Made by a program: the position numbers and the translations under genes. 64,000 nucleotides of DNA, taken from assembly GCA_026419785.1 (NCBI GenBank), contig JAODTK010005561.1, positions 124,001 through 188,000 of the forward strand, read 5' to 3'. This document shows, piece after piece, positions 22,701 through 63,599 of this stretch (within the stretch, counting starts at the first letter, position 1; the number at the start of each line of letters is the position of its first letter). This DNA is from Sclerodactyla briareus (Eukaryota > Echinodermata > Holothuroidea > Dendrochirotida > Sclerodactylidae). A model generated the notes under the pieces. That model was not told the DNA's origin and made no database searches. It saw nothing but the letters and a program-made list of their open reading frames with translations.

Positions 22701-25700
22701 GTTGCCGTTGCCGTTGCCGTCGTGAAATCTAAAGCTCCCTAATCTCTACATACCTTTGCAACCATTCTTCAACAGACAAACCTGGACCACCAGAGGGAGA
22801 ATACTTTGTAACCAGGCAGGACACACCCGACTCAATCCACCTCAGGTGGGCTCCACCCAGGGATGACGGCGCGCCACCGTGACGTTGTACCATCGGAGAT
22901 GAAGGCAGCTCGGTAAGGAGCAGTGGTCCAAGGTGGGCACCACCCCCGATACCCACTACACCTTCAGAGGCTGCACCGCGGGTCCCATACATCTTCAGAG
23001 TCTTCGCTGAGAACAAGTACGGGAAGAGCGAGCCGTTGTGAAGTGAGGGATGTGCACCTTCGGCAGAGGGAAGATCGGTGAGCGGCTCGGACACTCATGT
23101 CTTTCTGTCATTCCCTGAAACTGTGCACACAATTGTGCATTGCCTATTGACACACAGCAGTATTTTAAACACTGTTTTTCTTTTCACTGAATCATGTCAA
23201 TAAATTTTTCAATAAACAAGCAATAACAATATCATATGCTTGACATTCCCAGATTCCAAAGCAGCCATATTCAGTGGAAATAACTGTCCAAAGTATGAAT
23301 TAAAAATGCTACAAATGTGTTTAGCAAGACTATTATAAACAAATTGCACGTCATTGGGTACTCCATTGAATCATTAAGATTTTCAACATCACCCTCGAGA
23401 CTTCCATTTCTTACCTCCAAACACCCATGGTCACTGGTCATTTTATGGTTGTTGGAAGGTATATCGAAAAAAAGGCCAGCATATAAACATTGTTACATGA
23501 AACTGTATACCTGCATGGTGAGCATTCCCTAAACACTATGTTTCTATATCTTATCCACACTAGATGTTCCATCGCCTCCATCTAAGCCAATGATCACAGG
23601 ACTCCAGCCACGGTCAGTGGAACTGACTTGGTCCAAGGCCGACTCAGCGGTGGTGGTGCCCGTCATTGGCTACGTCCTGGAGATGAAAGGTCACACGCCA
23701 AGAGATGGAGGCCGTGTCTTCGACGAGCCAATCAGGGACACCAAATGCATAGTCCCCAACCTGTCTGAGGTCTGCGAGTATGAGTTCCGGGTCATGGCAG
23801 TTATGAGCTTGGGCCGCAGCATGCCAGTAGACTCTCAGAGCTGTTGACATGGCCGGAGTTGGAGGTAAGACACCATCAATAGAAAGCTTGGCTGGAGTAT
23901 GCCCAGTAGACTCTTGAGCCTGTCGACATGGCTAGAGTTGGTTGTAAGACATCATGAATGCAAGCTTGGCAGGAGATGCCCAGTGGAATCTCAGAACCTG
24001 TTACATGGCTGGAGTTAGGGGTAGACACCATTTATAATGAGATTGGTCGAAGCATGGCCAGTACACTCAGAGCCTGTCGTCATGGCTAGAGTGATTGTAA
24101 GACACAATCGATAAAAAGCTTGGATGGAGCTTATTCCAGTTAATATTCTCGAATGCCTCGTCTACATAGCTGGAGTTGGTTGTAATTGTTAGCAAGCTTG
24201 GCCAGAGCTTGCCCAGTGAAATCTCAGAGTCTGTTGATATAGCTGGAGTTGGAGTTACTACACCTCAAGAAAGCTTGGCTGGAGTATGCCCAGTAGACTC
24301 TTGAGCCTGTCGACATGGCTCGAGTTGGTCATAGGACACATTGATGAGCTTGGCTGGAGGCTTGCCCAGTATATTCTCATTGCCTGTCTACATGCTTAAG
24401 TCTTTCAAAGACATCATTGACAGCAAGCTTGGTCAGAGCTTGCTCAGTGAAATCTCAGAGCCTGTCTACATAGCGGGAGTTGGAGGTAATACACCATCAA
24501 TGCAAAGCTTGGCTGGAGTATGCCCAGTAGACTCTTGAGCCTGATGACTTGGCTACGAGTTGGGGGTATAGGGACACCATTGATGAGCTTGGCTGGAGCT
24601 TGCCCAGTACATTCTCATGCCTGTTTACATAGCTGGAGTTGATTGTAAGACATCATTGTTAGCAAGCTTGGCCAGAGCTTGCCAGTGAAATCTCAGAGCC
24701 TGTGGACATGGCTTGGGTTGGAGGTAAGACACCATTTATAATGAGATTGGTCGAAGCATGGCCAGTACACTCAGAGCCTGTCGGGGACATGGCTAGAGTT
24801 GGTTGTAAGATACATTGATAAAAGCCCCGTGCACAGTAGATTCTCAGAATTGTCCACATAGTGGAGTAACGTTGATTGTAAGACATCATTGTTAGCAAGC
24901 TTGGCCAGAGTGAAATCTCAAAGCCTGTTGACATAGCTGGAGTTGGAGGTAATACACCATCAATAGAAAGCTTGGCTGGAGAGGCCCAGTAGACTTCTGA
25001 GCCCGGATGAGCATGGCTCGAGTTGGTCATAGGACTCTCTCATTATGATCTGGCTGAGCTTTGGCTGCCCAGTAGATTCTTCATTGCCTGTTACATAGCT
25101 GGAGTTGATTGTAAGACATCATTGTTAGCAAGCTTGGCCAGAGTGAAATCTCAAAGCCTGTTGACATAGCTGGAGTTGGAGGTAAGACACCATTTATAAT
25201 GAAATTGGTCGGAGCATGTCCAGTAGACTCAGAGCCTGTCGACATGGCTAGAGTTGGTTGTAAGATACAATTGATAAAAAGCTTGCCCAGTCTATTTCTC
25301 AAACTTGTCTACATAGCTGGAGTTGATTGTAAGACATCATTGTTAGCAAGCTTGGCCAGAGTGAAATCTCAAAGCCTGTTGACATAGCTGGAGTTGGAGG
25401 TAAGACACCATCAATAGAAAGCTTGGCTGGAGTATGCCCAGTAGACGCTGAGCCTGTCAACATGGCTAGAGCTGGTCTATGACACCATTGATAAGCTTGG
25501 CTGGAGCTTGCCCAGTACATTCTCATTTATACTAGATGGAGTTATTGGAAAGACATCATTATCAGCAATCTTGGTCCAGAGCTGTTCAGTGAAATCTCAG
25601 AGACTGTTGACATAGCTGGAGTTGGTTGTATGACCCGATTGATGAGCTTGGCCAGAGTTTCGCTTAGCAAACCCTTGAAGGCTGTCGACATGGCTGGAAT

Positions 25701-31700: not shown

Positions 31701-34700
31701 ATCATAAGTGTAAGGTATCTGCAGCCTCATGCGGTCTCCTATCTGGTTCCTAGACATGGATTGATTTGTACTTAAAATCTCCTCAATCAGCCATGGTGAC
31801 TGGAATCTACAGTCATCATTCAGGCAACCTGTGTGTTCAGTGTCAGGTGTAGCTACCTTCACGCTTCCTAGCATTAAAGGCTCTAGATAAGTGTGTGGCT
31901 ATTTTCATGCTCCTGCGGGACTCCTGCATCAACCACAGCACTGAAGAATGATATGGACTGTTTGCAAGCCATGAGGAGGAGGAATAGTTGCAGGATTATG
32001 AAGGAAGATCACCGGACATGCTTGTAGTCATCTTTCAATAGCCTCACCTCATTCGAAATTTTGGCCATCTCGATATGATCCACATAAACAGTTGTGTAGA
32101 GGAGGCAAACCTGTGTCCAACTATTGGGGAAAAGCTGTGGCTGCCTCTATGTGAAAGATTAAGAATTGAACGTGAATCAGATCGATGCTTATCAAAAGTT
32201 TGCAACACCAGGTGTTTCCTGATACCCCAAGACCCATGGAGATAAAATTTTGTTGAGAAATTAAACGCTGTTCTTCTTCCTCCTCAGCCTGAGAACGTGA
32301 TGCTCCGAGACAGGACCTCAGATGACCTCAAGCTGATCGACTTTGGCCTCTCGCGGGAGATTGACCCTGACGAACCAATCAGAGTAATGTTTGGGACGCC
32401 AGAGTTTGTCGCCCCCGAGGTGGTTAACTATGAGGCTGTTGGTCTCCCTACCGATGTGTGGTCCCTTGGTGTGTTGGCTTACATTATGTGAGTATATATT
32501 CTCTTTGTTATATATTCTCTTTGTAAAGACGTGCTCCTTATGCAATGGGCAAAATAAGAATAGTGTCCCTACGATGTGTCAATTATGCATGGAGTTGTGG
32601 GTGGGGTTGCAAAAGCAGCCCAATAAGATGGAGTTACTACGGGCAACTGCTAATTACATGAGCTTAAGAAGGTGAGTTGGGAGAACAGTAAATCAAATTG
32701 TTCCCATATTCATTTATGGAGAGCCTACCAAAGGGTGACGCATTACTTTATTACAAGAGAAACAATAAGTTATACAAAGACTATGCCCCACCATCCTCTG
32801 GTCCTGGCTACATATGTCATATTATATATGTGTAACTATTTAGAAAAAGAATAAAAATCACTTCAATCCCATACTTTTGCCACAATGGAAACTTTCAAAC
32901 TTCTATCTTGCTCCATCAAATTACCATTAAGCTTCTTCCCTTCTTCAACAGGCTGAGCGGTTATTCTCCCTTCATGGGTGACAATGACCAGGAAACGTTG
33001 AAGAATGTTGCCAAGGGAGAGTGGGACTTTGAGGAGGATGCCTTCAATGATATCTCTGATGAGGCCCTGGACTGGATCGAGAAAATACTGGTCGTTGACA
33101 AAGAGTATGTAACTGAATCTTCTCAATCATAGTCAAATGCATAATTCATGCATTTATGTGAAATTGTTGTCAATCATCGTCAAATGCATAATTCATGCAT
33201 TCATGTGAAATTGTTGTCAATCATGGTCAAATGCATAATTCATGCATTTATGTGAAATTGTTGTCAATCATGGTCAAAGGCATAATTCATGCATTTATGT
33301 GAAATTGTTGTCAATCATGGTCAAATGCATAATTCATGCATTCATGTAAAATTTTTGTCAATCATGGTCAAAGGCATAATTCATGCATTCATGTGAAATT
33401 GTTGTCAATCATGGTCAAATGCATAATTCATGCATTTATGTGAAATTGTTGTTAATCATGGTCAAATGCATAATTCATGCATTTATGTGAAATTGTTGTA
33501 AATCATGGTCAAATGCATAACTCATACATTCATGTAAAATTGTTGTCAATCATGGTCAAATGCATAATTCATGCATTTATGTGAAATTGTTGTCAATCAT
33601 GGTCAAATGCATAATTCATGCATTTATGTGGAATTGTTGTCAATCATTGTCAAATGCATAATTCATGCATTTATGTGAATTGTTGTCAATCATGGTCAAA
33701 TGCATAACTCATACATTCATGTAAAATTTTTGTCAATCATGGTCAAAGGCATAATTCATGCATTTATGTGAAATTGTTGTCAATCATGGTCAAATGCATA
33801 ATTCATGCATTTATGTGGAATTGTTGTCAATCATGGTCAAAGGCATAATTCATGCATTCATGTAAAATTTTTGTCAATCATGGTCAAATGCATAATTCAT
33901 GCATTTATGTGAATTGTTGTCAATCATGGTCAAAGGCATAATTCATGCATTTATGTGAAATTGTTGTCAATCATGGTCAAATGCATAATTCATGCATTCA
34001 TGTGAAATTGTTGTCAATCATCGTCAAATGCATAATTCATGCATTCATGTGAAATTGTTGTCAATCATGGTCAAATGCATAATTCATGCATTCATGTGAA
34101 ATTGTTGTTAATCATGGTCAAATGCATAATTCATGCATTTATGTGGAATTGTTGTCAATCATGGTCAAAGGCATAATTCATGCATTCATGTGAAATTGTT
34201 GTAAATCATGGTCAAATGCATAATTCATGCATTTATGTGAAATTGTTGTCAATCATGGTCAAAGGCATAATTCATGCATTTATGTGGAATTGTTGTCAAT
34301 CATGGTCAAAGGCATAATTCATGCATTCATGTAAAATTTTTGTCAATCATGGTCAAATGCATAATTCATGCATTATGTGAAATTGTTGTCAATCATGGTC
34401 AAAGGCATAATTCATGCATTTATGTGAAATTGTGTCAATCATAGTCAAATGCCCGATTCATTGATTAACATTTCAGAGTCTATAATGATTATATTGGCAC
34501 TGTGGGATACATGCTCGCTTGGAAAGTCACACACACACATCAGTGACTCACTGTTGGTGTGTCCAGATTAAACAAATTGAACTGTTTATTCAGCACAGGA
34601 GTAATTTGGAGATCAAGTCATGGTTCGCTCACTGAGTGACTGGCTTGTCAAATAAACTGCCCTGTATAGTACAACATTATTGGTATTACCCCATGGATGA

Positions 34701-37700
34701 CTATTAAGAGCAGGGGATATAATATGAACTTGAATGGGGCCAATTGAAATATTTCATCCAAATTTCCCCATGATCACAAAAAAGTTGGTACTAACCTACT
34801 TTTGGTGTATGTTCACTTTCAGAGAGAGAATGACAATACAGCAGGCTCTAGACCATCCCTGGCTACAGATGATCACCGATGAGGAAGCTAGGAGACACGC
34901 CCGTAGACTGGATACCACCAGACTAGCACAATACTGGAAGCAGTACAAATATGTGGTATGTAGCACCCTTATAGCTCTACTCTGTATGGTAGTAGGTAGG
35001 TATAGAGAGCAATGACCGTAGAGCAACCTCTGAACCATCCCTGGCTACAGATGATCACTGATGAGGAAACTTGGAGACACATATGCCCATAGACTGGATA
35101 CCACCAGACCAGCACACTATTGGGAGCAGTACAAATATGTGGTATGTCGCACTCTTATAGCTCTACTGCATATGGTAGTGGGTAGGTATAGACACAATGA
35201 CCATAGAGCAAGCTCTGAACCATCCCTGGTTACAGATGATCACTGATGAGGAAACTTGGAGACACATATGCCCATAGACTGGATACCACCAGACTAGCAC
35301 AATACTGGAAGCAGTACAAATATATAGCTTGCCTATAGCTTTACTGTATATATAATAGCACCATGTAATAATAATATCTGGGTGCTTCTTTAGTGCTTTT
35401 TCAACGTGATCAAAGCGCTTCACAGATTTACCCCTGATCATCAGTGACTTGTCACACCTATACTATATTTATAGGGTACGCATCTCTTCCTTCATCGTGT
35501 CCCCCAGGGGGGCTCACCAATAGGGTGCAGCCACATACGACGCACGCCTACTAATCACAAGTCACCTCACAAGGTCCCCATTCCAACACGTGGGTAACGC
35601 AAGACAGTTGGAGGAATATGCATTTTCTTAGGGCACTACGGAAAAAGCCTGTAGGCTTTGTGGGATTCGAACTCACAATCTTTGGATCACAAGTCTGGAG
35701 CTCTGCCGACTGAGTTGATCCGCTTCCTCATGTACGATGGTAGGTTGAGAGATACTGTGTAAATCTCTACCTGAGCATCAGTCGACAACAAACATCGGAC
35801 TTCTTGCTATGAAGTATGTTCCCCTAACCAAATCCACCTAACATTTATCTGTTTTTTTTTTCCAGAGTGGCCACACAGTGGTCTCCATTGGTAGAGTGGC
35901 CCATGGTGGCGCCCTTCGTGAGTACCACCAGGTCTACCGCGGATCGCAGCTCTATCAGAGGGTGCTCTTCATGGGTATGTTTTAAATAGGAAGCCAACTC
36001 GATCTACTCGCTTTTCTCAAATTAAACATATCCTAAATATTTAGTTTAGAGGCTGGGGCTAGCATGGGAATAAAATCAGTGTTATTCAGTTTTATCCCAT
36101 GTTCCCTTTGGCAGGTGTGAGATGTCACAACATAAAGACACAATGTTACATTGTATTTTGCATGTGTCATTAGCAATTGGGGTATATGTACAATATTATA
36201 CATATTATATATTATATATATTTAATATATTTATATATTAAAATATGTGAACGTTAATCATTCTTTGGAGGACATGGAACAATTTGCACAGAGTGTGCAC
36301 AATCTTCGTGCATTTTGAGATGAAGTTATGACACCTAAAAATGGTTGGTGAAAATTTGAGCAGAAAATGACTCAAACTTGTGCAAAGAATAAACAAGCGT
36401 TGGGTAGAGGAAAGGCTAAATGCTGGGATCACTGAGTATTGATTGAATGCCACAAATATGTGCAGTTTTATTGTTGATGTGTTTTGTGCATGATAGGGTC
36501 TTAGCAACAATGGGATTGGAATTCTTCCTTGAAATTTCCATTCCCATTGAAAAATGTTTGCCCCTCTCCCCCAAATCGGAGGAAGAAGGAGTGTCCCTCT
36601 ACCTGTGAATGCATGTGAACCTTTGAGAGAGTGAGTCATTGTTGTGTTGTTATTTGCTGTTAAGCATCTGCTCTCCCTCCTCTCATCTTGCATATGTCTC
36701 ACTTCCCCTTATCTTCTGTTATTATTCAGATACCAGAGATGCGCTCCTGTGTTCACTCGTTGCCTTGAAGACGTCATCGCCATAGAGGGCAACGCAGCTC
36801 GCTTTGAGTGTGAGGTGACAGCTTTGTCAGAGCCACTCATAGAGTGGTACAAAGAGAATGCACTACTCATCATCGGGGTCAAGTACAAGATGCTCTACGA
36901 TGATGGGACATACACCCTGGTAGTGAACAATGTCGACATTGACGATGTCGGCGAGTACATCTGCAGAGCAACCAACTCTTATGGACAAGCCACATCATCT
37001 GCTGACTAGAGATTGAATGTGAGTATGCCACATCATCTGCTGACCTAGAGATTGAATGTGAGTGTGCCATGTCATCTGCTGACCTAGAGATTGATGTGAG
37101 TATGCCACATCATCTGCTGACCAAGAGATTGAATGTGAGTATGCCACATCATCTGCTGACTAGAGATTGAATGTGAGGTTGCCACATCATCTGCTGACCT
37201 AGAGAGTGAATGTGAGTGTGCCATGTCATCTGCTGACCTAGAGATTGAATGTGAGTGTGCCACATCATCTGCTGACCTAGAGATTGAATGTGAGTATGCA
37301 CATCATCTGCTGACCTAGAGATGAATGTGAGGTTGCCACATCATCTGCTGACCTAGAGATTGAATGTGAGTATGCAACATCATCTGCTGACTAGAGATTG
37401 AATGTGAGCATGCCACATCGTCTGCTGACCTAGAGATTGAATGTGAGCATGCCACATCATCTGCTGACCTAGAGATGAATGTGAGTATGCCACATCATCT
37501 GCTGACCTAGAGATTGATGTGAGTATGCCACATCATCTGCTGACCTAGAGATTGAATGTGAGCATGCCACATCGTCTGCTGACCTAGAGATGAATGTGAG
37601 TATGCCACATCATCTGCTGACCTAGAGATTGAATGTGAGTATGCCACATCATCTGCTGACCTAGAGATTGAATGTGAGTGTGCCACATCATCTGCTGACC

Positions 37701-40700
37701 TAGAGATTGAATGTGAGCATGCCACATCGTCTGCTGACCTAGAGATTGAATGTGAGCATGCCACATCATCTGCTGACCTGAGATTGAATGTGAGTATGCC
37801 ACATCATCTGCTGACCTGAGATTGAATGTGAGTTTGCCACATCATCTGCTGACCTAGAGATTGAATGTGAGCATGCCACATCGTCTGCTGACCTAGAGAT
37901 TGATGTGAGTATGCCACATCATCTGCTGACCTAGAGATTGAATGTGAGTATGCCACATCATCTGCTGACCTAGAGATGAATGTGAGTATGCCACATCATC
38001 TGCTGACCTGAGATTGAATGTGAGCATGCCACATCGTCTGCTGACCTAGAGATTGATGTGAGTATGCCACATCATCTGCTGACCAAGAGATTGAATGTGA
38101 GTAGTTAATATATGTTTCTGTTGAAACTTAAAGGGGTCTAGTGTGCAACTAGAAATGGTTATGATCTCTAGTACATAAAGAAATTTGAAATGGGCATTAG
38201 TCTATCTTTCTATCCATTCATCTGTTCACAATTGGTGTATGGTCATAATAGGGTATTCATGAATTTGAGGTCAATGGTCAACTTGGGTTTAATTGCAGCC
38301 ATTTTGTTTGAATGGTCATGCAGATTCTACTCCTACAGTATAGATCTGTTTGTCATGAAAGTTTGTCAATATTATCAACAACCAATGTCACATATGGGAT
38401 CTTCATGAATGTCTGATCAAAGGTTTCATCCGTCTTGTTTGAACCGTAAAGCGGCTTCTCTACTCTACAGAATATATAGGATGGTTATGAATGTTGGTCA
38501 TCGTTATTATTGACCAATGTACCTGTCTGGAGTGTAATTAATTTTAGGTCAAAGAACATCTAGGAGTAAATTTTGGCCTTTTTTGTTGAACAGCCAGATG
38601 TTTTTTTCTACAGAATGGATAAAGTGATCATTAAAGTTGTTGGTCAGCACTGACCAATGTTATAGATGGAGTGTTCAGGAATTTAGGGTCGGAGGTCGTG
38701 TAGGGGTCAATTTCAGTCATTTTGTTCGAGCAGTCACGCAAGCCTCAGTCCTATGACGTAGATTGGATGATCATGAACATTGGTCCGTATTATTGTTGAC
38801 CAATAGTAGATGTGAAGTCTAGGAAATTAGAGGTTTTATATATATATATATATGAGTATGGATGCAGATCTTATTAGTAGAACTTGGTATCACTATTTAC
38901 TCCGATGAGATTCAATTTCTTGACATGATGTTGCTGATTCTTGGGATTGTTCTTGTTTTTTAGTACTCGGAGAAGAGGAGCTTGCAAAGCGTGGTGAGAG
39001 GAGGACTCTTGACCTCAAGAGACAGAGGTGAGTTTACTTGAATATCTCTTGAAAAACCATGAAATTCATTTCCAAATGGATTTCATTTCATCAAATGAAT
39101 ATAAACAGTCTCGCCAAAACCATATGATATCCCCATGTGGTAAAGCAGAGAATGTCCACCGTTCTGGCAATTTAAAGGGCAGGCACTTAACAACTTTGAT
39201 GAGTTTGTTGAGAACAGTTAGTACTGAACATCTGGAGCTAATATAACTGGAGAAGCTCTAATTGTAAGAACCAGGCATGCTCACCAACAATCCTGGAGAG
39301 TAATGTTTGGCATATTCACACAAATATCATGTGATATAGAACCTAGGTAGTGAAGGGCAGATGAGAGGGCACAACAAAAACAAGAGGGCAATCCCAAAAG
39401 TTGCAGGATCTCATCGGCAAATGTGGAACTATTAATTTGTTTCTACTTGCTACCTTTTCGCGAGTTGCAAAAGGACAAAATTTATCAAAATATGTCTGAA
39501 AACAGCCATTTTCCCCAAAAATATTCATATTCATGAAATTTCAGTTAATTTACAGCATAAATGTTGGGAAAACCCTTTGTTTTGATACTTTGTACCTTCT
39601 TCTGAAATTTAGAATCATTCAGTCCTCCCAATCTCTAAATATACCAAAAACTGAACAGATTTTCAGAAATTCTCAAATTTGGCCAAAAATCTATTTTCCC
39701 CCTAGAATTGGCATTTTTCGTAATTTTGGGCTGATTGCATGGGAAAAGTTGTTATTGTGCCCTTTTACATTTCTACAAAGTTTTAAATCATGCAACCATT
39801 GGAATAGGGAAATATTTGAAAATAGTGAAAAACTGTAAAAATGAGAAATTGCCCCAAAATTTGCCTTTTGCCTCCTAAATTCCCCAATTTTGATAGTTTC
39901 TGTCTAACTTCGAGAGCAACTATGTGTTTAGTGACTATTTCAGCGTGTGACAAAAAGTCACTTTGTTCAGCCACTCCAAAATGGAGATATTTGCGAAAAA
40001 ATCAAAATCTGACGGCCTAGCGCAAACGCACACACACACGCACACACACAAACGGGCACTTTTGCAAGTGCACCTCATTGCTGGATCACCCGGCACCCAT
40101 GGGTACACCATTCAAGGGTTACCCCTCAGTGGATAGTTTCAAACCACCACTATGGTTACCATAGCAACTGTTGCTATGGCAACCAGCAACAGTAAATATA
40201 GGTGAAATGGCAAAGTGACTACAATATCTCATCTGGTCCTTCGGGACCGATGAGATAATAAAATCACTACACAAATGGCTCCCTGAACTTGTCTGATTTG
40301 TGCCCATCCTAATGTTTCTGTTTATTTTTCCCTGTAGGATTCCCCTTGGTGAGAGGGGCAGAAAGCTCCGAGCTGGACGTGCTGCTATGATTGGAGTCAG
40401 TGAGAAGGCACCAAGCTTGTGTCTGAACTAGAAGACCAGCAGTGTGGACTCGGCTTCATCCTACCACTGACATTCCAAGGCAAGGCTTGATATTTATTTG
40501 TAATTTCATTTCTCATGTAGCCTTCTGTCCCATTTCAGTGTCTGCCTCAGTTTTGCTATACGAGTGGATCTGATGTCAACATTTCAATTGTGTGTACATA
40601 TACCCTCATGAAAATGTTTTCTTTAGCTTAGGTTGCAGCTTGTGCTGTTTGTGCGTAGCAGATCTCATGTTGGTATAGTATGCAGCAGTACCTTAGTATC

Positions 40701-43700: not shown

Positions 43701-46700
43701 GCCGTGAAGAGTAATGCGCTAAAGCCTAAAGTGTCCGCGGCGGAGCCTGCGATGCGGCGGTGGCGACCCACCCAAAATCATAACCTCCCCGAACACTCCC
43801 CGCGCGGATATAATGGAAGATGATATAATATACCAATACTGTAAAGTGTGTTACTTGTTTTGTAGGTACAAAGATCATAAGGAGGTACAGGATGGTCAGC
43901 ACTATTCGTTTGAGTACGGAGATGACAATGAGACATATACACTGGTAGTACAGGAAGCGTTCCTACAGGATGCTGGAACATACACCTGCCAGGCATCCAA
44001 CCTCATGGGACGAATCTCCTGCGACAGCAGCGTCAAGGTCAAGAGTAAGTTATATCTGGGTTCAGTGAGAGCTCACACTCCTGCGAGAAGCACTAAGCCA
44101 TGTTCACTCCTCATTGTGGCAACTGATTGTGGGGGTGGTGGAGTTGGAGGGGGGGGGGGGGGAATTTTCGACTGAATGAAACTTAATCTATTCGTATAAT
44201 GAGTACAGTCAGTGACACAGGTTTAGTTTATGCCTGACATGCTTCATCGGGCCAAGGGGTTACATACTCTCTCCTCGTAAAGTTTACTAGTGAGTCTGGT
44301 CTTGCCTAATAAATAGCATCATTATGCATACATGTCAGTGTATGTATTAATTTTGATAGTTTGCATTATATTTAATTGTATGCATTATCTTTCATTGTTA
44401 GCATTATCTAAAATTTAGAATGATGATTACCCAACGTTGATCGTATGATAAAATCTAACTAATCATTTCTCAAGCTTCGACAAATGAGCTCAGTTTTAAT
44501 TTAAACACACAGTAGCTTGCTTCTTCCTATTTCAATAACCCTCCTTTGATGTCAGTTGAGTAATACTGCAGGGAATACTACAATCGTGGACAGAGACGGC
44601 TCTGCCATAACATGATTCTTGGGTATGGATTAGGGTAATATTAGAAATCTTCAATATCTTATCTAGAATATCAATGTTATTGTTCATTTTTTTTCTTATT
44701 CACAGCTGCTGGAGCTGATAGTGATGTTGAGTAAGTATTCTACATATGTTCTTCTTTTTTATTTGCATATTTTCCCAATTGCCTTTTTTACTCCAAGGCA
44801 CAATTTCCCAACAGTACTCCATGGGATATCATTGAAGTGCACTGCTCACCTGGTGAGAGAGGTGGATAAGGCAGAGGCATTAGGAAGACCCATTGAGTCC
44901 TACAAGCTTGAGAAGCTTTACATAGATTGGATCATCTATCAACAAGGATTTAGACATTGCAATTTTGCCAGAACATTGGAGGCCGTGCATAAAAAAGTAA
45001 CAATACTCAAAACTAGAGCAAATTTTGTGATTTCTCAATATTAGATGGATGGTGACATGACTATGTAATGTTTGTCATATATTGATTGTTGTAGAATTCA
45101 CAATAACAGTATTTGTGAAAGACTATATGGAATTCTTGAGCTATTAAATGTTTTTCAAAGAAAATTCGGTACCTGAGTGCAGTTTAGATCAACCAAATTT
45201 TTCGCTACCTTGATACCATTACTTGAGTGGCATGTATTTATGTCGCAGGAAAGCAAAGAGTATTGGAAGAGAAATAATATCGTAATGAATTACCACCTTG
45301 CATAAAATTTTTAGCTTTTATGTTTGTCAGGATATATGAGTGTATTAGTAACTGTTTTCCTGTTATTCACAATTACAGGACTTGGAGGACAGTACACCAC
45401 GTTTCAGGACCCCCGAGGACATAATCCCTGTGAAACAGCGTATGGTTGCACCCTTCTTCAGCCTTCCTCTCTCTCGAAAGACATTTGAGATCGACATCAC
45501 TGCCAAGATGAGCTGTGCTGTCCAGGGCAACCCAAAGCCCAATGTCAGCTGGACAAAGAATGGGCAACCCCTGACGGCGAGCAGTCGCTGCCTCATCTCC
45601 TACAGGCTAGGCATCTGTACTATCGAGATCATGCGAGCGACCCTGGCTGATACAGGGACGTATGCCTGCGTGGCCAAAAACAGCGAAGGGGATGGTACAA
45701 CTGTGGCTGAACTGGTCATAGTCGAAAGTGAGTGTTGTCTCAACTGTCGTCATAGTGATTAGACATAATCTCAGACAAAGTAACAAATTTATAAATGTGT
45801 AGCTTCATTCCAATTGCTGGGTACCAGCCCCGCTTTGTACTCATTGGAGCAGTTACTAGTTCTTTTTTTTTTTTTTTTGCTCAGGATCAGTCGAGAAATC
45901 ACGAAGTCTTTTGGCTTTCTGGTTTGTTCTCATAAATACTGCATGGTCCAATGATCCAGTCTATACTGACTAATCAATGGAGTTTCTACTACTCTAATAC
46001 TTTACAAAAACATATACCCACAGCTACTCCAAAATATAATTCCTGGGCGATTTGTAGTTTGTAGATGCAGATTCATGACCAATTAATTTTTTTTTCTACA
46101 AAAACCAGGTCTGAGCGAGGACGATGAAACCTACAACTATATTCGTCCATCATTCCCCAAGGGACTGCGAGACATGGAGAGTGAGGGAGGGTCGTGTGGC
46201 CAGGATGAAATCAGAGTCTCTGGCTACCCCGCCCCAGAGGTTACATGGTAAGTGATCCCCATCAGATTCAACTTTTGGTGTGAATGTTTTGGCTGGAGGC
46301 ATTGAGAATGAACAGTTGAACTGCAGCTGCAAATCACACTGTAACAATAATGATTGCTGCCAGGTATCACTGAGTCATGTCGTCTACTGTAAGGTAATGT
46401 CCATCATTATATTGAGATTTATTATGTTAGGATCTTGGCTACAGCTAGGCTGAAGAAGCTGCAGCCTTGCTGCAAATCACTCTGTAACGATAATGATTGC
46501 TGCCAGGTATCACTGAGTCATGTCGTCTACTGTAAGGTAATGTCCATCGTTATATTGAGATTGATTATGTTAGGATCTGGCTACAGCTAGGCTGAAGAAG
46601 CTGCAGCCTTGCTGCAAATCACCCTGTAACAAAAATGATTGCTGCCAGGTATCACTGAGTCATGTCGTCTACTGTAAGGTAATGTCCATCATTATATCGA

Positions 46701-49700
46701 GATTGAGTATGTTAGGATCTTGGCTACAGCTAGGCTGAAGAAGCTGCAGCCTTGCTGCAAATCACTCTGTAACGATAATGATTGCTGCCAGGTATCACTG
46801 AGTCATGTCGTCTACTGTAAGGTAATGTCCATCGTTATATTGAGATTGATTATGTTAGGATCTGGCTACGCTAGGCTGAAGAAGCTGCAGCCTTGCTGCA
46901 AATCACCCTGTAACAAAAATGATTGCTGCCAGGTATCACTGAGTCATGTCGTCTACTGTAAGGTAATGTCCATCATTATATCGAGATTGAGTATGTTAGG
47001 ATCTTGGCTACAGCTAGGCTGAAGAAGCTGCATGCAGCCGGGATGCGAAAAAACAATATAAAGCACTCATGCATGTTGTCCTCTGCAAAATCATCTTCAT
47101 TGTTGAGATTTTCATCATCAAGTTAGCAATTTGAGAATATCTTGCAGTTGCCCACAATTATACAAACCTGTCTGTATCTACCAGGCTCAAGGACGGAGTT
47201 GAGATTGAGGGTGATGACCGTATTTCAGTGGAGCGTGCCCTGGGGGTGTGGAGACCCTGATCATCGCAGGTGTCGCACCCACAGATTCTGGCCGATACCA
47301 GGTCATGGCCAGCTCTGCTGCAGGGAGCCTCCGTTGCAGCTGACCTCATTGTTGTGGACCGGGAGTTATCACAGTACAGGGTATCCCAGGATCGGGGAGG
47401 ACCTACAGTGACATAGCTAGCAGGTGGAAGTGGGTCCTGGCTAATGCTAAACAGTTACCCCCATTCTTCCTCACGATAAACTTGCTGATACAGTAGTTTC
47501 AAATCCAAGAGTTTTTTTGCATTCATTCTGTCTGGTTGATGGTGTCCGACCAGAATGATGAATAATTATTTTTTGTAGCTAGCACTGCTATTGAGGCATT
47601 AGTACATGTAATGGGAGAAGGGAATAGAAATAAAATGCATACTTGCATCCTAAAAATCTTGGATATCTGAACGGAATTATTGTGGTCAGGTCTGAATTCA
47701 TTAAAAATTGTTTGAAAATCATTTCTATGTCACTTTTATCATTGATAACATTTCTTCTCCCCAACAGTTGAGGCTGATGTGGACACGGACGATGAAGGTG
47801 ACGGCAAGCGGCAGAAGAGGCGGAAACGCAAAGCTCCCAAGCACAAGGAAGTCGACTTCGATGAGAGGGAGAAGCCTGCCATCTCTAAGACCCTCTTAGC
47901 CCGTAGACTCGCCAAGAAACCAAGAGATTACTCTCCTTCCCTCACCTCTGAAGGGATTAGTGTGAGCGAACTCCAACAGCATTATCGTACCCGAAAGACA
48001 GGCGAACAATACGTAGAGAGTGACCGCTGGACTGCAAACATCGCAGTCTCTCCAGTCAGGACTGTCGGCAGGAGAAGAGGTCCTTCTCCAATGATAGAGG
48101 GCGCTCTTTCTCCGTTGATCCTTGGCAGGCGTGCCTCCACACCTTCGATATCGTACACACCCACTTCACCATACATGAGGCAGCGATCGGCATCTCTGAT
48201 TCCTTCAGAGGAAGGGAGAGTCACCCCGAGCAAGGTTCCACCTAGCCCTGGATACCGTACACCAACCCCACAGTTGATTGTCTACCGGGCAGGCACGAAG
48301 GGTTACTATGTGCCGAAGAGGGCGCCATCACCTAAGAAGGGTGAACGGAGAGGTCGGTCACCAACAAAGCGTGGAGAGTCCTCTATACCCAGACCAGAGA
48401 GTATGGTGGTCGATACCAAAAGACCAGAGGTCCAACTGGAAACAGAGACTTCATGTTCACAAGACCCCCCCAGGAATGTGGCTGATACAAAGGCCTCCAA
48501 GGCTGCAAACCTTCCTCCCTCCAGTGCTGAAGGTGTGAGGATACCATCTCGGTCCTCAGTGGAACACGACGAATTCCATCGGCCATCATCAAGAGCGATC
48601 AGTCGAGCGCATGCAGAGGCTCACTCCAACCCAACGAGAGAGGCCTTACACCCCAACGAGTCCTTCTCAAAGAAGAACACCAGTGAGTCCGTCTCGCAGA
48701 AGAACACCAACTGATAGGTCTTCCACACCAACGAGCCCTGCACGTAGAGCAGCACCACGTCCGTTCACACCCACCAGCCCTTCACAAAGACAGAGACTCA
48801 CTCCAGTGAGAGGGAGAGACCTTTCACGCCAACCCAGTCCTTCCAGGGTCAGTTCTAGAGAGTTCATGGAGCGAGGATTCGCCAGATCAATTTCCAGAGA
48901 TTCCAAGGACTCCAGTGAAAGGTCTAGGTCAAGAACTCCATCGAAAGGTTCCAGGATAGACCTGGACACCCACTCGAAGACTGTGTCCTTCAAGCGAGAT
49001 GCCAGGTCTCCCCTCCCATTTGATGAAGCCAGAAGCCCAGGGGAAGGGGGTCCAAAGGGAAGCAGCATTGCTCCACTCCCACCAGAGTATGAACGTTAGG
49101 CTAGTGTCAACTTCTCGTGGACATGAGCGGATCTCTCCACTCCCACCTGGGGTCAAGGGCAAAAAGAAACCCAAGTTCCAAAGGAATTTGAGCGCCGGTA
49201 CACAAGCGACACAGAGTCCGATCGAGAGTTCATGCTCTAAGGGGTACAGCACCTTCAGACATCAGAAGGATAGAGGCAAGTCACCTGCCACCATGGGGAG
49301 CACCTCCTCGGTCACCTCCCAGCGTCTCAGATTCTGGAAGATCTAGGCAGTCACCAGCTTCCTATCGGAAAGCGAGGAGGGGAAAGAAATGACTCATGCA
49401 AGATACCTGAAGGAAGCCCAGAGTGACAGAACCAGGATCCATTCATCAGGCTACTCATCCAGACCAGCACCTGAATCTCCCAGTACCAGAACAAGGAGGG
49501 AATCTCCTTCTACCAGAGATTCTATCGACGAGGGATTTATCAGCGGAGGGTCACGGGAGTCTCCAAGTCACCGAATGAGAGAATCTCCCAGCTACAGGAC
49601 ACGCTCGAGAGAAACAGTTCACACCAGGGAATCACCAAGCTATAGGGCTAGCGAGTCGCCGATTCGTCGGTCAAGAGAAACAACAACCTCATCTAGAATG

Positions 49701-52700
49701 AGAGAGACAACAAGTTACACAACAAGGGAATCGCCCAGCTTCAGAACTCGGGAGTCACCAAGCCTGAGAAGGCTGCGAGAGAAAGAACCATGTCTCCAAG
49801 TAACCGAGAATCACCAAGCTACGGTTCTTATGCTTCCTTCAAGGAATCGCTGAGCAGGAGTTCTCCAGCCTCCTTCCGTGAAAGAGAGGTTGCTTCCCAG
49901 AGGAAATCCTCAGCGCCCCCTAGATACAGGACTACAAAGGAACCCCCAATGACAAGCTATGACTCGTATAGGTATAGTAGCTCATATGAGCCATCTGGAC
50001 ACAGACAAGGAAGAGACTCATACAAGTATTCCAAGGAATCAAGCAGATATTCCTCAAGAGGAGGATATGACAGCGACCGACAGAGGCATCCACGAAGAGA
50101 CCATGACGACAGGCACCATCAAAGGAGACACTACGATGATGAACGGTCCTATGACCTCTCCTTCGGCGATTCCATCAGGGAGGAACTGGGAGAGATCGAG
50201 GAACTGCCCAGAGATCCAGTAAGGCGGAAACCTGGCAAGGAAGCAGAGAAGGAGGGACCTCCACTTTTCCTGAAATACCTGAGGGATGTGAGCGTCATGG
50301 AAGGAAGACGTGTCATCCTTGAAGTCGAGGTTGCAGGTGAGAAATGAAAGAGATCAACTAGGTGGTTGATTTGATTTGATTTGATTTGATTGCTACGGGT
50401 TCAGGAAGCCAATTTGACACATCGTGGAACCCTAACCGAATTTTTGATCGTGGATGAGCACCGGCGACAACCGCGCCTTCTCTTCTCGACTAGTGCTCAG
50501 ATGATATCGAGGCAGGAGTGACACCAATCCCTGCTCCCGGGACCGCAATTTACGTCCCCATCCGACGGACGGTCAGTGAACTCCAGGACCTGACCCCACT
50601 TGTAAGAACCTGGAGGAGCGGGAAAGATGTTCGACGCGACTGCTCAAAGCGACCGACGGTACCTATTGCAAGTTTGCCCCCGAAAAACAAACCCCCCGAA
50701 ATTACCAATGCCCACTGCCTCAACAGCCAGGACCAGGAACCTAAGACTAGGAACACGCCAGTCGAACTTCAAATACAGCCACTTCTGGACAAATGCACGG
50801 TGCACTGGCTGCTGGAATTCGAACACAGAGGACTGTTGCACGCCAAAGCAGACACTGATACCGCTCTACTATTCTCCCTCAGCCCCCCACCTTCATCTTC
50901 GGAAGTCTCCTCTGTTCAGAGCGAACTGCCTTGCAGTTTGTGGATTATTTATATTTCAACGGGTAGGTACCACATTTTTCAAAAATGTGGGAGACAGCCT
51001 CTAGGTCTGGAACTACTCATGAACTGAGGGTGGGTTGAACTAGGGCATGCTTCCTGTAGGGATTTGGCCTCCAAAGGTGCTAACCGGTTTGCTGCAAAAA
51101 GTGAGGGGAGTCCCCGCCCTCCGGTTTTGGGAGGACATCCAAGGATTTTAAAACTGAACGAAGGAGAATAAAAAATGAGGAACAATGATAATCATTTCAT
51201 TTTCAGGGTTTATCATAGCTTTATACCTTCATGCAATGGACATAATGTTCAATGCTGTTCAGAAAAAGTCAACCGGTACATGCCTTAATACTATGAATTG
51301 AAGTTCCGTTGTCCTTTCTGTTTACTTGTTATGGATTGATCCAGTAATCAATTATACTGAATCTAAGTCTCTGTATTTTCCACTCCCAGGTACCAGCCGA
51401 TGGATGTAGCCTGGCTGGAAACGTCAAGGACCTCCCTGATTGCGTGATTTTTCCGCTACATCAACCGGGGCAATATCTGCCAGCTGGAGATACAGAAGAC
51501 TCCAGAAGACTTGCAAGTACACCTCGAAGTACTCAACGACCTGGGCGATGCCGACTTCCCTGTGCAACGTCTCAGTTTCAGGTGAGCCCTCCTTAGCTTC
51601 AGAAAGCGTGGAAATGTGTTTCACCGAGTAATTTCACTGGTAAAACCACTTGATCAGTTGTCATGTCTTCGCGATTGAATCACCATAAAAAGATTTGCCA
51701 TATCTCCACGATACTGCCTCTCCTACTGAAAAATGTCCTTTTTGCTCATTTTGGTTTTTTCAGTTTCATAAAATTCAGTAAGATTTACTAGTTCAGCAGT
51801 GAACAGATGACATTGTATGTTCCATTTGGCTAAACAATAACAATGAAAGGTTAGCTATAATATTTAATCTAGGATTCTTTAGATAGAGATCCATATTTTG
51901 ATATATGTAGAAGACAACTTAGAAGGATAGGTTAGTGCAGTCAGCGTTTTAGTTTCACTGTGCCCCAGAGCTCTGTGTAACCTGTATATATATCTTACTG
52001 ATACAGAGGAGCCAAGTGTCAGCATCAGTGTCACTGGGACTCAGGAGGTCAGTTACAGTGCCGGCCAACATGCAGCCATGGACGAAGACCACATACCACC
52101 GGAGTTCTTTGAGGAACCAGAATCTGCCGTCGTCGACGAAGGCCAGACTGCCAGATTCGTCTGTGACGTGGATGGAGAGCCAATCCCAAAAGGTATGATG
52201 GATCATCACGTTCGCATGCATGCGTTGCAACAAGCTGTGCACTATGATTACAAATAAAATCAATTTAATGAATTCAAGGAAAATATTCCTATCTATCAAA
52301 AATAGTTCATGTCACAGAGACAACTGCTTTGATTTGTTGGAGACCATGCTAGTGCAAATGACCAGGGTGATATTACTCTTTTTTCCATTGGAGTGCATGC
52401 CTGGTTTCTATGGCCAGGGCAAAAAAAATTCTCTTTTATTGGAGAGCATGCTAGTTCAAATGACCAGGGTGATATTACTCTCTTTTTTTCGGTTGGAGAG
52501 CATGCCAGGGTGATATTACTCTCTTTTTTTCGGTTGGAGAGCATGCCAGGGTGATATTACTCTTTTTTTTTTTTTCCTACCAGGGTGATAGTATTCTTTT
52601 TTATCAGCGAGCATGCCTAGTTCCTATGGCCAGGACGATATTACACTTTGTTTGGATAAAGAGCATTCCTGGTTCCTATGGCAATATCATACTTGTTCGT

Positions 52701-54633: not shown

Positions 54634-56425
54634 CCAGTTTCCTGACTGACTATTTGCCTATTTTGGTCCATTTCAGCTCATTTGTTCGTCTACCTTTGGT
54701 GGTTCCTGAGCTGTAATTGTACCTATGTATAGTTTTATTGCTTTTTATTTTATTTCCATTTATTTTGAAGACCTAACGTGACTTCCAGATATGTACATAT
54801 TTATTATACCGACTGTGCCATAAGAAACGATATTCCAAATTTACGGTCTGTGTATATGGACTGTATGTATGTACAGGACATACTGTATGCAAACACATGA
54901 CCATATGAGTGAAGACATCGTTGAGTAGAATCTACGTGAATTTTTCAACGAGAGACGGATGAATGAGAACTTTGTATAAATGAAGCTGGACATCAAAGTA
55001 GACACAACTGAGCTGAATTGGGACAAAGTATCCAAATATACGGATCAGTGAAATCTTGCGAGAGTGAACCAAGACAAAGGAGGGAAAGAAGTAAAAAAAA
55101 AATAGCAAAACTTTTGGAAAAATATTGGAGAAAGTTTTTGATGACAAGGTTACTTAGCCTTTGGACATTACTACTCTAGTGATATGACAAAATTGGTGGA
55201 TTATAATGTGGATGATCATATTTAAGACAATAACATTTTTAGCTATTTTAGCCATTAATTTGGCTTCTTCAGAATCTGCCTTCTTAATCTTGGGAAAACT
55301 GGGTCAGTCATGATATTTGTGGTGGTTATTGTGACTTGTCTGTTTTTTTCAGTAACATAGCTTTCACACCTTGCAATTTTGCTTTTAACCTGAAAGGATT
55401 GGGGAATCTAAGAAATGTTGTGGTGGCGTTTTTGAGGTTTCCTTCTATCTTTTGATTGTTCAGTAGTTGTAGATATGTTAGTTTAGAAGTTGAACACACT
55501 TTGGCACTGGTGTATTTGAATCAGACCCATTGGCATGTTGTGGTGGCTTGCCAAAATGGTTGAGTTACGCCAGTCAATTTGTAATTTTGTCAGTGAACAT
55601 TTCAAAAATGCCTTTCGAGTATTCTTCCGCGGAATAAATATTGGAGATGCAACACAAAAGAGGGCGACTCCATCAGAAACAAGTACCGATGAAACACTCC
55701 CGTTCAATTGTTGTGGTGGCAATTTTCTGGGAGTCCATGCCGGCTACCTCTGTTTCACTGAAGGTGCCAAAGAAATTGTGGCTATTTTCTTTACACCTTC
55801 AGTTGCATTCATGCGCAGATGTATGATTGACACATTTCCTTTTTTTGTATGGTGGTTGTTGTTATGAGAATCTGCAGGGGTCACCTGTATTTGAGTTGGG
55901 TCTTTCAAAATTGAAGACGAAGGATGGATATTGTTGTGGTGGCTATATTCACCTCGAAGTTTTAACAAAGTGGAAGCAGTACTCAACCTTTTGAAATGTT
56001 CACTTTCGATAGTCACATGCTCAAATGTAGTTTCAGTTGCACCAAGTTTGAATGGGATTATGCCAGTTCAGCACAATCCTTCTAACAAATGAATAATTAA
56101 CAATTGATTTGAATATTGAATTGCTTGCAGTTAGTTGTCAATTGTTGTTCTAAGTTCAGTTGTCAATAATGTTGACTGCGATATCCCCTAGAATTAAACT
56201 GATCACAGATGGCGGAAGTAAATGGAATCATGTGATCAGAATGAAGCTTTTGAAGAACCATGAGAAGAAATGAATTGAGAACCAAAAAATGTGTCCAATG
56301 ATTTAACAGAAAGTATAATTGTCATGGTATTTTATCATGCCTTCTGCCAATGTTGAATCGTGTTGTAAGTAACGCAATAATAAATCCACAGCAATTATTA
56401 AATAAACCAAATTTTGGTTGCGTGT
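54634..56425 (+). other. Probable 3' UTR with polyadenylation signals
   Basis: AATAAA occurs at 55633-55638, 56379-56384 and 56401-56406. Nothing up to there resembles a dispersed repeat. The region has four copies of TTGTGGTGGC. The open frame at 55535-55867 has no domain features. The transcript end is inferred. Confidence 0.55.
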
Positions 56426-56589
56426 TTCTTGAGGTGTTATACATTATTCTAGGAGCTTCTCCATGATCGTCACTCAGCTGAAAGGATTAATTTATGCACA
56501 CAGGCATGACATTTCTCATGAGTGCAGTTTCTAAAGAACGTAAGCATCAATCAAATAAGTGGACATTGGACATGGAGTTTACAAATTAA

Positions 56590-58720
56590 TCCGGAGGGTT
56601 CTCTGTTCAAGGAGAAGAGACAGAGTGATCACTTTGTTGTGTATCCGTCTGTCCGTACATGCAGTTCGATATTTCCTGACCACGAGAGCCATCATTCCGG
56701 CATTTCGTGTGGAGGTGTGCAAAGAGAAGAGTTGTCGATGAGCATCCACTTTTCTTCCCAAAAGACCACCATACTGATTTGCATATTTCATGAAAATTGG
56801 CCTGAAAACTTTTGTTCGAGATATCCTCTGCATTGGTGATGCAGTTCGATATGAGTGTAATACATGTTTAACTGATTAGATTTCAGGCATAAATGTGCTA
56901 TTCGGCATTTCCAAGTTTGCTGGTTCTTCACGAAACGTGTGGAAAGTGGTCTATTGTCTCAAGAGACTTAGAAGAGACTCCAAAGCAAAAATCACTTCGC
57001 CCCAGGTACTTGTATTTAAGGTGGGTGTGTGTGTCTTGCTTTCCCGTTAGCAGAATTTTCCTCTGAAACGGTAGAACCGATTTTATAAAATTTTGTACGT
57101 AGTATCGTTGGGTGAACACAATCTAATTAGATTTCAGGCACAAAAGTCACTAATTAAGTAGGGAAATTGGCCTATTTTCGCTCATACCATATAACCGGTG
57201 TGCACTGTCCATCTATCTATCCTTCTGTCAACAATTGGTTAATTTTACTCCCTGTCTGCAGGTCTGGGTTGATTCTGTGGTGGTAAGAAGAGTTGGGGTA
57301 ATTTGTCAGCAGTACCATCCACTTGTGATCTAGGGGTCATTTTTGACCCCAAAGGGGTCAAACGGTCAAAATGCTTCTCCTCCTAATTTGATTTAGATAC
57401 TCATTATGTGTGGTCAGTGTCCTCACTGACCACTGGTGCATACAGGGTGTTCAGGAATTTGAGGTCAAGGGTAATCTAGGGGTCAATTCCGTCCATTAGT
57501 AAAAATAATCAAAACGTTTCTATCCCACAGATTGGTTGGATTTTCTTTGTAGTTGTCAGTAGTGCTACTGACTGGTGGTACCTGTAGGGTGTTCAAGGAT
57601 TTTGGGTCAATGGTCATTTAGGAGGCATTTTGAACACAAAGGGTCAGTCATATTCGGGGTCACAGTCAACATACTTGTCCTACAGTATGATTTCGATAAA
57701 CATGATGACCAATAGTACATATGCATATGAAAAATTTGAGGTCAAAGGTCATCTAGGGGTCAAATTCTGTGAAAATATGCAAAATGCTCCTTATCTCACA
57801 GATCAATCTGAGTGTGGTATGAGCTTCTGAACCATTGGTTCTCCATATGTAATTTATTGTTTAAGCTCGTTAGCAGGGATACGGACGAACCGTAGGTACT
57901 ATCATTATTTGGTTTGGCTCATAGGTTTGATTTGGTTTGGTATGAGGCTGATGGAAGGGTTGGATTTTCTGCATAAAATATGCTAATTAAGTCACCTAAT
58001 TTGCATAATTCATGCATAATTCCAAAGTTTGCTGTATTCTCATGAAACTTGGTGGTATGATTAGCCTTCAGTTCCCAACATTTTTAACATAGACCTGGAG
58101 GTCATTCATGTGTCTCCTTTGCATACTTTTATGTCCAAATTCCAAAGTTTTGTTCAATTTTATGTAAGCTTTATGGGTATGGTCCCCCAAATTTAACATA
58201 GATCGAGTGACAATGAAGTGACGTACTGAAATGGTGTGTCCCAAGAGAACAAGCGAGATGTGTGTGTTGTTTAGTACGGTGTGACAAGTCACTAATAATG
58301 ATCAGAGGTAATATCTATGGAGTACTTTGATAATGTCTTTGACCTGGAAAGCGCTATATGAGTTATTAGTTATTATTATTGCTAACATGTGATGATGAGG
58401 TCAGAAGGTAAAAAAATGTGCTTATTAAAATGTGCTAGTTAAAAAGGAGTGTCAATTTTAGGATATGTGAGAGAGCTCTGTGTGCTATATATGTGAGACC
58501 AGCTCCTGCTTCAAGTAAAGATGGGTCAAAGGTTGGTTTTGATACCTTTTCAGCAATAGCATTGGGTGTGTGCATCACATCAAGGCAACTATCGTGTCAT
58601 CAAAGGTGTTCAATAACAGAACCTGCCAAATAATAACATTTTTCTGCAACACCTCTAGTGACTGTATGCGATACGCTGATATTTTGGACATGGTAAACAT
58701 CTTCATACCCAGAGGAAGCC
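56590..58720. mobile_element. Family D-related repeat block, copy 3
   Basis: The left part matches 19405-19735 (GTGATCACTTTGTTGT, CCGTCTGTCCGTA, CCATACTGATTTGCATA, GAAAATTGGCC). The interior has GGTCA-rich degenerate units (57290-57780) like 38180-38870. Later text matches the 20160-20720 region. The block is rearranged, with SINE B tail sequence at 58262-58370. Confidence 0.6.
58262..58375 (+). mobile_element. SINE family B, copy 3 (tail fragment)
   Basis: ACGGTGTGACAAGTCACTAA, TGATCAGAGGTAATATCT and AAAGCGCTATA match the tails at 35395 and 43415 in opposite orientation. Confidence 0.6.
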
Positions 58721-59790: not shown

Positions 59791-59799
59791 ATTGGATAA

Positions 59800-62700: not shown

Positions 62701-62985
62701 AATAGCTTGTTGCCTGCTGAGTAGCCCAGTGTCTGTCAGTTCAGAGCAGTTGAATAGCTTGTTGCCTGCTGAGTAGCCTAGTGTCTGTCAGTTCAAAGCA
62801 GTTGAATAGCTTGTTGCCTGCTGAGTAGCCTAGTGTCTGTCAGTTCAAAGCAGTTGAATAGCTTGTTGCCTGCCTAGTAGCCCAGTGTCTGTCAGTTCAG
62901 GGCAGTTGAATAGCTTGTTGCCTGCCTAGTAGCCCAGTGTCTGTCAGTTCAAAGCAGTTGAATAGCTTGTTGCCTGCTGAGTACA
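59800..62985. repeat. 52-bp minisatellite, about 60 copies (3.2 kb)
   Basis: The unit is GTTGCCTGCTGAGTAGCCCA, GTGTCTGTCAGTTCAAAGCA, GTTGAATAGCTT. Two main forms occur at one site (CTGAGTAGCC and CCTAGTAGCC) and four at another (CAAAGCAG, CAGAGCAG, CAGGGCAA/G, AAGGGCAG). Multiple TAG/TGA codons exclude a coding repeat. Confidence 0.97.
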
Positions 62986-63129
62986 TGGAAGTTATTTCAC
63001 TAAGTATTTCAACTCGGTGACGGATATCATTTGGAAACTGATAAAGGGTTACATATATACTGATGATAACAAGCTCTGAGTATTCCTGGTGAAGCTGCAC
63101 TTTTTCCTATTTAGATTTATTGACAAAGC

Positions 63130-63590: not shown

Positions 63591-63599
63591 ACATATTTT

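What the first reader, a model, noticed from the sequence alone, without database searches (positions are those of the whole stretch)
36975..38105. Exon end and splice donor amplified about 28 times as an in-frame 39-bp array
Seen directly: the last 32 bases of the first post-kinase Ig exon and its GTGAGT donor are the first unit of a tandem array filling the next 1.1 kb. The unit is 39 bp (13 codons), and intact units keep the gene's frame open as CEYATSSADLEIE. Using any downstream donor in place of the first would add a multiple of 13 residues before the basic linker, provided the intervening copies are full length. Inference: this may be a ladder of alternative donors giving a variable spacer next to the kinase, or simply slippage tolerated because the first donor wins. 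I do not know of a described case of this form in this gene family.
Basis: partly seen in the sequence, partly recalled or inferred. Interest (0 to 1): 0.82.

Follow-up and report, generated by a model that had tools for sequence, protein, structure and literature searches.

The report
Minisatellite grown from an exon's end
In a giant muscle-kinase gene of an unidentified animal, the last bases of one exon and its splice donor have been copied about 28 times into the following intron; this is probably a young repeat that splicing tolerates, of a kind already known from human genes, and not a new splicing device.

Summary
The array is real. From 36989 to 38103 a 39-bp unit (31 bases of exon end plus 8 beginning with the donor) gives 29 GTGAG donors. 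The exon is the Ig exon after a titin/twitchin-class kinase. The exon's own copy lacks one base and, as assembled, meets an in-frame TAG (37007-37009) before the first donor. Only 15 of the 28 units between donors are 39 bp, so 4 of 28 later donors are in phase with the first. The deletions are probably assembly errors, but two other arrays have far fewer, so this is not settled. The open frame is expected by chance about 30% of the time, since 31 of 39 bases are coding already. Human CBS has a boundary repeat of the same anatomy (24 exon plus 7 intron bases, 16-21 copies), and human UBC splices stochastically through a tandem array of sites. Most likely this is a tolerated boundary minisatellite with the first donor used most, though evidence on donor choice is mixed. 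A ladder of spacers is not excluded but has no positive evidence.

The parts
36737..37018 (+).
   Evidence: Pfam I-set 36746-37003, E 6.3e-21; PDB titin chains lead the sequence matches, best single stretch 53 bits; start chosen by phase, inference
36989..37018 (+). Unit 1: exon end that seeded the array; 30 bases as assembled, 31 in the consensus
37007..37009 (+). In-frame TAG as assembled, at a one-base deletion relative to the array consensus
37019..37024 (+). First splice donor, AAT|GTGAGT
36989..38103 (+). 39-bp minisatellite with 29 GTGAG donors
37404..38096 (+). Part of the array where one haplotype (CATCGTC) recurs every fourth unit (units 12, 16, 20, 24, 28)
38097..38102 (+). Last donor of the array; followed by unrelated intron, and TAG follows at once in the array frame
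38964..39027 (+). Basic linker exon, TTTTTTAG before it, donor GAG|GTGAGT at 39028
   Evidence: inferred, no transcript
34823..35323 (+). Last kinase exon (34823-34955) with its donor (34956) and about 50 intron bases, in 2.7 tandem copies of 185 bp; copies 2 and 3 carry four extra bases and lose the frame

Best explanation
A young minisatellite seeded on an exon-intron boundary. In a giant titin/twitchin-class muscle kinase gene, the last 31 bases of the first post-kinase Ig exon and the first bases of the intron, donor included, were duplicated (slippage or unequal exchange, inferred) and grew to 29 donors, partly by copying blocks of four units. The upstream copy remains the exon end. Splicing most likely uses mainly the first donor, because the exon lies between long introns and the first donor gives the shortest exon; some stochastic use of later donors is likely. 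The single-base deletions, including the one that puts TAG in the exon, are most likely assembly errors. Shown: the array, its origin from the exon end, the four-unit recurrence. Inferred: donor choice and the errors.
For: Array and origin. Substitutions recur every four units (13 shared at lag 4 against 2.8 expected, no shuffle of 5,000 as high; 12 lags were tried), but deletions show no lag below P 0.178 (lag 4: 2 against 1.0, P 0.28), and units with the same substitutions share no more deletions than shuffled ones (3 against 2.9, P 0.54) (units 2-29). Of 15 deletions, 12 fall in the 8 of 39 positions that are two-base runs (P 1.3e-6; class chosen after seeing the data). Other exons look frame-broken: the Ser/Pro/Arg-rich stretch 47690-50960 needs at least 12 frame switches, five within 47769-50344, against 32-45 in six hand-picked, mostly intronic stretches of that length, and domain matches near 1500, 13300 and 47200 are partial in one frame (a domain split by an intron would look alike). 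Nine tandem arrays of 250 bp or more fill 15.5% of the window, so arrays are common here. Upstream intron 1781 bases, downstream 1945 from the first donor; in human data, near-equal donors between long introns favour the upstream one (PMC9225289, section 6). A repeat of the same anatomy occurs in human CBS on control chromosomes (PMC2630376, passages).
Against: The 47-bp and 52-bp arrays have fewer indels (4 per 1330 and 4 per 3174 bases, end gaps left out, against 15 per 1108; P 0.004 and 1.9e-6), so an error rate special to this stretch must be assumed. Of 12 coding stretches checked, 8 need no frame switch, among them four of five kinase pieces and also the 47160 stretch that I read by eye as broken. 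The first donor is not stronger than the others, and in a local folding model it is third least accessible of 29 (6e-05) while the last is the most accessible (0.031). In the human data, the downstream donor is preferred in about 60% of all events, and where both possible exons exceed 250 bases, as here (282 and more), only 44% prefer the upstream one. In CBS, more repeats were reported to lower enzyme activity (PMC5188458, passage), so such arrays need not be neutral. The animal is unknown and no RNA was available.
Confidence: 0.58

Rival explanations
1. A working ladder of alternative donors: splicing at different units adds a multiple of 13 residues (CEYATSSADLEIE) between the Ig domain and the basic linker, tuning the spacing next to the kinase.
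For: Unit is 13 codons and the consensus frame is open; 20 of 29 donors have equal predicted U1 pairing; human UBC splices stochastically through a tandem array of sites to give varying numbers of ubiquitins (PMC10809524, abstract).
Against: In-frame openness is expected about 0.3 by chance; no coding constraint seen in the units, at low power; as assembled 4 of 28 later donors are in phase and unit 1 has a stop.
Confidence: 0.12
2. The deletions are real: this allele of the exon ends in TAG, so transcripts through it stop after the kinase and one Ig domain, making a short kinase form or a null allele, perhaps by conversion of the exon end from deleted units (units 5 and 11 carry the same deletion).
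For: TAG at 37007-37009; same deletion in units 1, 5 and 11; the 47-bp and 52-bp arrays have few indels.
Against: Deletions do not follow the inheritance of substitutions, are all one base and mostly in two-base runs, and other exons of the gene look broken too.
Confidence: 0.14
3. The last donor, nearest the acceptor, is used mainly, so the whole array is exon and adds up to 28 x 13 = 364 residues if all units are full length.
For: The last donor is the most accessible of 29 in the folding model; in human data the downstream donor is preferred in about 60% of all events and slightly where both exons exceed 250 bases.
Against: Would make an exon of 1360 bases as assembled; near-equal donors between long introns favour the upstream one and shorter exons are favoured in general; no coding constraint seen.
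Confidence: 0.08

Closest known systems
Human CBS 31-bp VNTR at the exon 13-intron 13 boundary, c.1444_1467+7(16_21)
   Same: By its name the unit is 24 exon bases plus 7 intron bases, in 16-21 copies, and it occurs on control chromosomes (PMC2630376, passages); boundary position also in PMC5188458 and PMC1395315 (passages). That RT-PCR showed alternative splicing there is recalled from Lievers 2001, which is not held.
   Different: 31 bp is not a multiple of 3 and units are invariably 31 bp; more repeats were reported to lower CBS activity. Here 39 bp, a multiple of 3, mixed unit lengths as assembled, 29 donors, another gene and an unidentified animal.
Human UBC tandem dual-specific splice sites
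   Same: In-frame tandem unit with a splice site in each, giving variable unit numbers by stochastic splicing (PMC10809524, abstract).
   Different: UBC sites are AGGT, act as donor and acceptor and delimit each ubiquitin; here AGGT occurs at two places in the array and the unit is a copy of an exon end.
Internal tandem repeats at exon-intron boundaries in recent human gene duplicates
   Same: Repeats at boundaries that give alternative splicing (PMC2812944, abstract and passages).
   Different: Reported as formation of novel introns in recent paralogues.

Membership tests
Exon-intron boundary minisatellite (CBS type) | Unit joins the 3' end of an exon with the first intron bases, donor included | tested here: met
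   31 exon bases plus 8 beginning GTGAGT; exon end inferred from homology, not RNA
Exon-intron boundary minisatellite (CBS type) | First copy is the functional end of a coding exon | tested here: inconclusive
   I-set domain runs into unit 1, but unit 1 has TAG as assembled
Exon-intron boundary minisatellite (CBS type) | Constant unit length | tested here: inconclusive
   15 of 28 units are 39 bp, 12 are 38, 1 is 37; deletions look like errors but this is not settled
Exon-intron boundary minisatellite (CBS type) | Copy number varies between individuals; later donors sometimes used | not testable with these tools
   one sequence, no RNA
UBC-type tandem dual-specific splice sites | AGGT at every unit boundary | tested here: not met
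   AGGT at 37176 and 37330 only within the array
Titin/twitchin-class giant muscle kinase gene | MLCK-like kinase with Ig and fn3 domains around it | tested here: met
   kinase against PDB, 60 of 806 matches shown: MYLK4 2x4f 1.2e-84, twitchin 1kob 1.3e-83; death-associated kinases follow (from 1e-72), then titin 1tki 4.4e-70, obscurin 8ak2 2.5e-54; fn3 and I-set upstream, I-set downstream (+ strand of 1-50000 only)
Titin as opposed to twitchin or obscurin | Orthology by phylogeny | not tested
   no animal protein collection at hand beyond PDB chains

The most novel reading that the evidence does not exclude
A length-variable, in-frame ladder of equal splice donors inserts 0 to 28 copies of a 13-residue, cysteine-containing segment (up to 364 residues) between the first post-kinase Ig domain and the basic linker of a giant muscle kinase, so that array length and donor choice set a heritable and tunable spacer beside the kinase.
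Probability: 0.08. Interest if true: 0.72.

Novelty: new member of a known kind. Interest (0 to 1): 0.3.

Why it matters
If later donors are used, it would be a natural test of how the spliceosome chooses among 29 nearly identical donors spaced about 39 bases apart, and of whether a muscle kinase tolerates a variable spacer. If not, it is another boundary minisatellite that splicing can ignore, and a caution about reading-frame claims from an assembly with single-base deletions.

Tried and rejected
Whole-genome context: no genome is held for this window, so no homologues or other alleles could be compared. The scans of viral, metagenome and prokaryote contig collections were not used.

RNA structure: four units fold with z -4.32 against ordinary shuffles, but against 500 tandem arrays of shuffled units z is -0.98, P 0.17, so the signal is what such a repeat gives; rejected as evidence of function.

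Coding constraint on units: 3 of 10 distinct changes synonymous against 27 of 117 possible; no support, low power.

Copies elsewhere in the window: none at up to 3 mismatches; all 15 matches lie in the array. tRNA scan: none.

Other arrays parsed but not tested further: 58-bp (5 copies; 1 single-base deletion, 4 insertions, mostly at its end), 61-bp (5 copies; 1 deletion, 2 insertions), 41-bp (3 copies; 2 single-base deletions and one 13-base end gap). Arrays at 458-1137 and 23806-25625 were not parsed; the repeat finder gives the first 9-14% indels and the second 9-12% in its long rows (2% in the short row 25228-25427), against 2% here, so they are noisier or older.

Donor energies for three other exons printed were taken at wrong places; one search replaces two of them (the third, near 45726, was not redone), and two of the nine look-ups (kinase exons 1 and 3) found no pattern and gave no value.

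Papers: ten searches ran. The search for titin with minisatellite and splice site gave one unrelated paper (listing only). A statement that this case is not in print for this gene family rests only. Lievers 2001 and Zhuo 2007 are not held. The DOK7 paper PMC5585400 was seen in passages and not relied on.

Reasons: the table note (44% upstream preference where both exons exceed 250 bases), and the recount that 8 of 12 coding stretches need no frame switch.
Full report
What is there. The tandem repeat finder places a 39-bp array at 36989-38103, 29.0 copies, 92% matches. Cutting it at GTGAG gives 29 donors, the first at 37019 and the last at 38097, and 28 units between them: 15 of 39 bp, 12 of 38 bp and 1 of 37 bp. 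The core 36-mer matches 15 places in the window with up to 3 mismatches, all within the array, with a mean of 0.00 in 100 shuffles. The upstream end of the array is the end of an Ig exon: Pfam I-set matches 36746-37003, profile positions 1-86 of 90, and titin chains lead the PDB matches, the best single stretch scoring 53 bits (the E-value of 4.9e-64 sums over several Ig domains of one chain). So the array was seeded from the last 31 bases of the exon plus 8 further bases beginning with the donor.

The gene. Five exon pieces between about 30490 and 34955 form an MLCK-like kinase. Its best solved relatives by sequence are MYLK4 and twitchin, then death-associated kinases, titin and obscurin (60 of 806 matches shown). 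fn3 and I-set domains lie before it and I-set domains after it (three + strand frames of 1-50000 were scanned, not 50000-64000 and not the - strand). It is therefore a giant muscle-kinase gene of the titin/twitchin class in an animal. The species and the exact orthology were not determined, and no genome is held. The linker exon inferred at 38964 is open in two frames.

In the exon's own copy the consensus GACCTAGAG reads GACTAGAG. The Ig frame therefore meets TAG at 37007-37009, nine bases short of the first donor. As assembled, 4 of the 28 later donors are in phase with the first. Fifteen single-base deletions and no insertion were found in the array, unit 1 included, besides an 8-base end gap.

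Are the deletions real? Three results say probably not. The substitutions recur at four units (13 shared at lag 4, mean of shuffles 2.8, none of 5,000 as high, 12 lags tried), while the deletions recur at no lag (lowest P 0.178; lag 4: 2 against 1.0, P 0.28), and units with identical substitutions share deletions no more often than shuffled ones (3 against 2.9, P 0.54). This is, on units 2-29; the period rests mainly on one haplotype and the power is limited. Twelve of 15 deletions lie in two-base runs, which are 8 of 39 positions (P 1.3e-6; the class was chosen after looking). Other exons of the gene look frame-broken: by eye; by partial domain matches in one frame (an intron could also split a domain); and in the Ser/Pro/Arg-rich stretch 47690-50960, which needs at least 12 frame switches, five of them within 47769-50344, while six hand-picked and mostly intronic stretches of the same length need 32-45. 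Two results say the opposite. The 47-bp and 52-bp arrays hold 4 indels per 1330 and 4 per 3174 bases against 15 per 1108 here (P 0.004 and 1.9e-6; end gaps and a 4-base insertion at the end of the 52-bp array left out). And 8 of the 12 coding stretches checked need no switch, among them four of the five kinase pieces and the 47160 stretch that I read by eye as broken; the single switch in the fifth kinase piece lies near its donor. I put assembly error at about 70%.

Is the open frame meaningful? The consensus reads CEYATSSADLEIE. Since 31 of 39 bases come from coding sequence, the frame is open there by descent. The remaining conditions, a length divisible by three and no stop in the few extra codons, have a joint chance of about 0.3 (my arithmetic). 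Distinct substitutions taken singly are 3 synonymous and 7 not; all possible single changes are 27 synonymous, 82 not and 8 stops. Nothing here shows selection on a translated array, at low power.

Which donor? Predicted pairing with U1 is the same (-5.2 kcal/mol) for 20 of 29 donors, the first included; 7 score -4.4 and 2 score -4.9. Six other donors of the gene, one of them in a copied exon, range from -4.6 to -10.5. So the first donor has no advantage in strength. In human data, donors of near-equal strength between long introns favour the upstream one (PMC9225289, section 6), and shorter exons are favoured in general; but over all events the downstream donor is preferred in about 60% (section 5), and where both possible exons exceed 250 bases, as here, 44% prefer the upstream one (table note in section 7). 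Here the flanking introns are 1781 and 1945 bases; the paper's cut-off for a long intron was not seen, I recall about 250. A local folding model makes the first donor the third least accessible and the last the most accessible of 29. The array's folding is no stronger than that of tandem arrays of shuffled units. A caution from CBS itself: where its intron 7/exon 8 junction is duplicated, splicing strongly favours the more distal site (PMC2630376, passage). On balance I think the first donor is used most, with some use of others, but this is the weakest step.

What is known. Human CBS carries a repeat named c.1444_1467+7(16_21): 24 exon bases plus 7 intron bases, 31 bp, 16 to 21 copies, present on control chromosomes (PMC2630376, passages), at the exon 13-intron 13 boundary; more repeats were reported to lower enzyme activity (PMC5188458, passage). 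This is the same anatomy. Human UBC gives variable numbers of in-frame units by stochastic splicing through a tandem array of dual sites (PMC10809524, abstract), and repeats at exon-intron boundaries alter splicing in recent human duplicates (PMC2812944, abstract and passages). The finding is a new member of that kind, in another gene, with a unit that is a multiple of three.

A local habit. The last kinase exon with its donor is itself copied 2.7 times just upstream (34823-35323), its later copies frame-broken by four extra bases, and a 47-bp array begins 18 bases after the previous exon's donor. Nine arrays of 250 bp or more make up 15.5% of the window. Arrays at boundaries are therefore likely to arise and be tolerated here (inference).

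Verdict. A real and pretty structure, best read as a tolerated boundary minisatellite; the ladder of spacers is possible but unsupported, and RNA would settle it.

Noticed in passing
34823-35323: The last kinase exon (34823-34955) plus donor and about 50 intron bases is present in 2.7 tandem copies; copies 2 and 3 have four extra bases and lose the frame, and each is preceded by TATAG.
   Followed up: partly
33105-34452: A 47-bp array of 28 copies begins 18 bases after the donor of the fourth kinase exon, another array at an exon end in this gene.
   Followed up: no
47690-50960: A long Ser/Pro/Arg-rich coding stretch after the Ig domains is open only with several frame switches, pointing to assembly errors.
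   Followed up: partly
46326-47032: A 143-bp array of five copies with a 285-bp higher-order period lies in the intron after the donor at 46248.
   Followed up: no
59810-62983: A 52-bp array of 61 copies with few indels, the largest array of the window.
   Followed up: no
361-440: The - strand looks tRNA-like by eye (GGTTCGATTCCCC box), perhaps a tRNA-derived repeat; ARAGORN called no tRNA.
   Followed up: no
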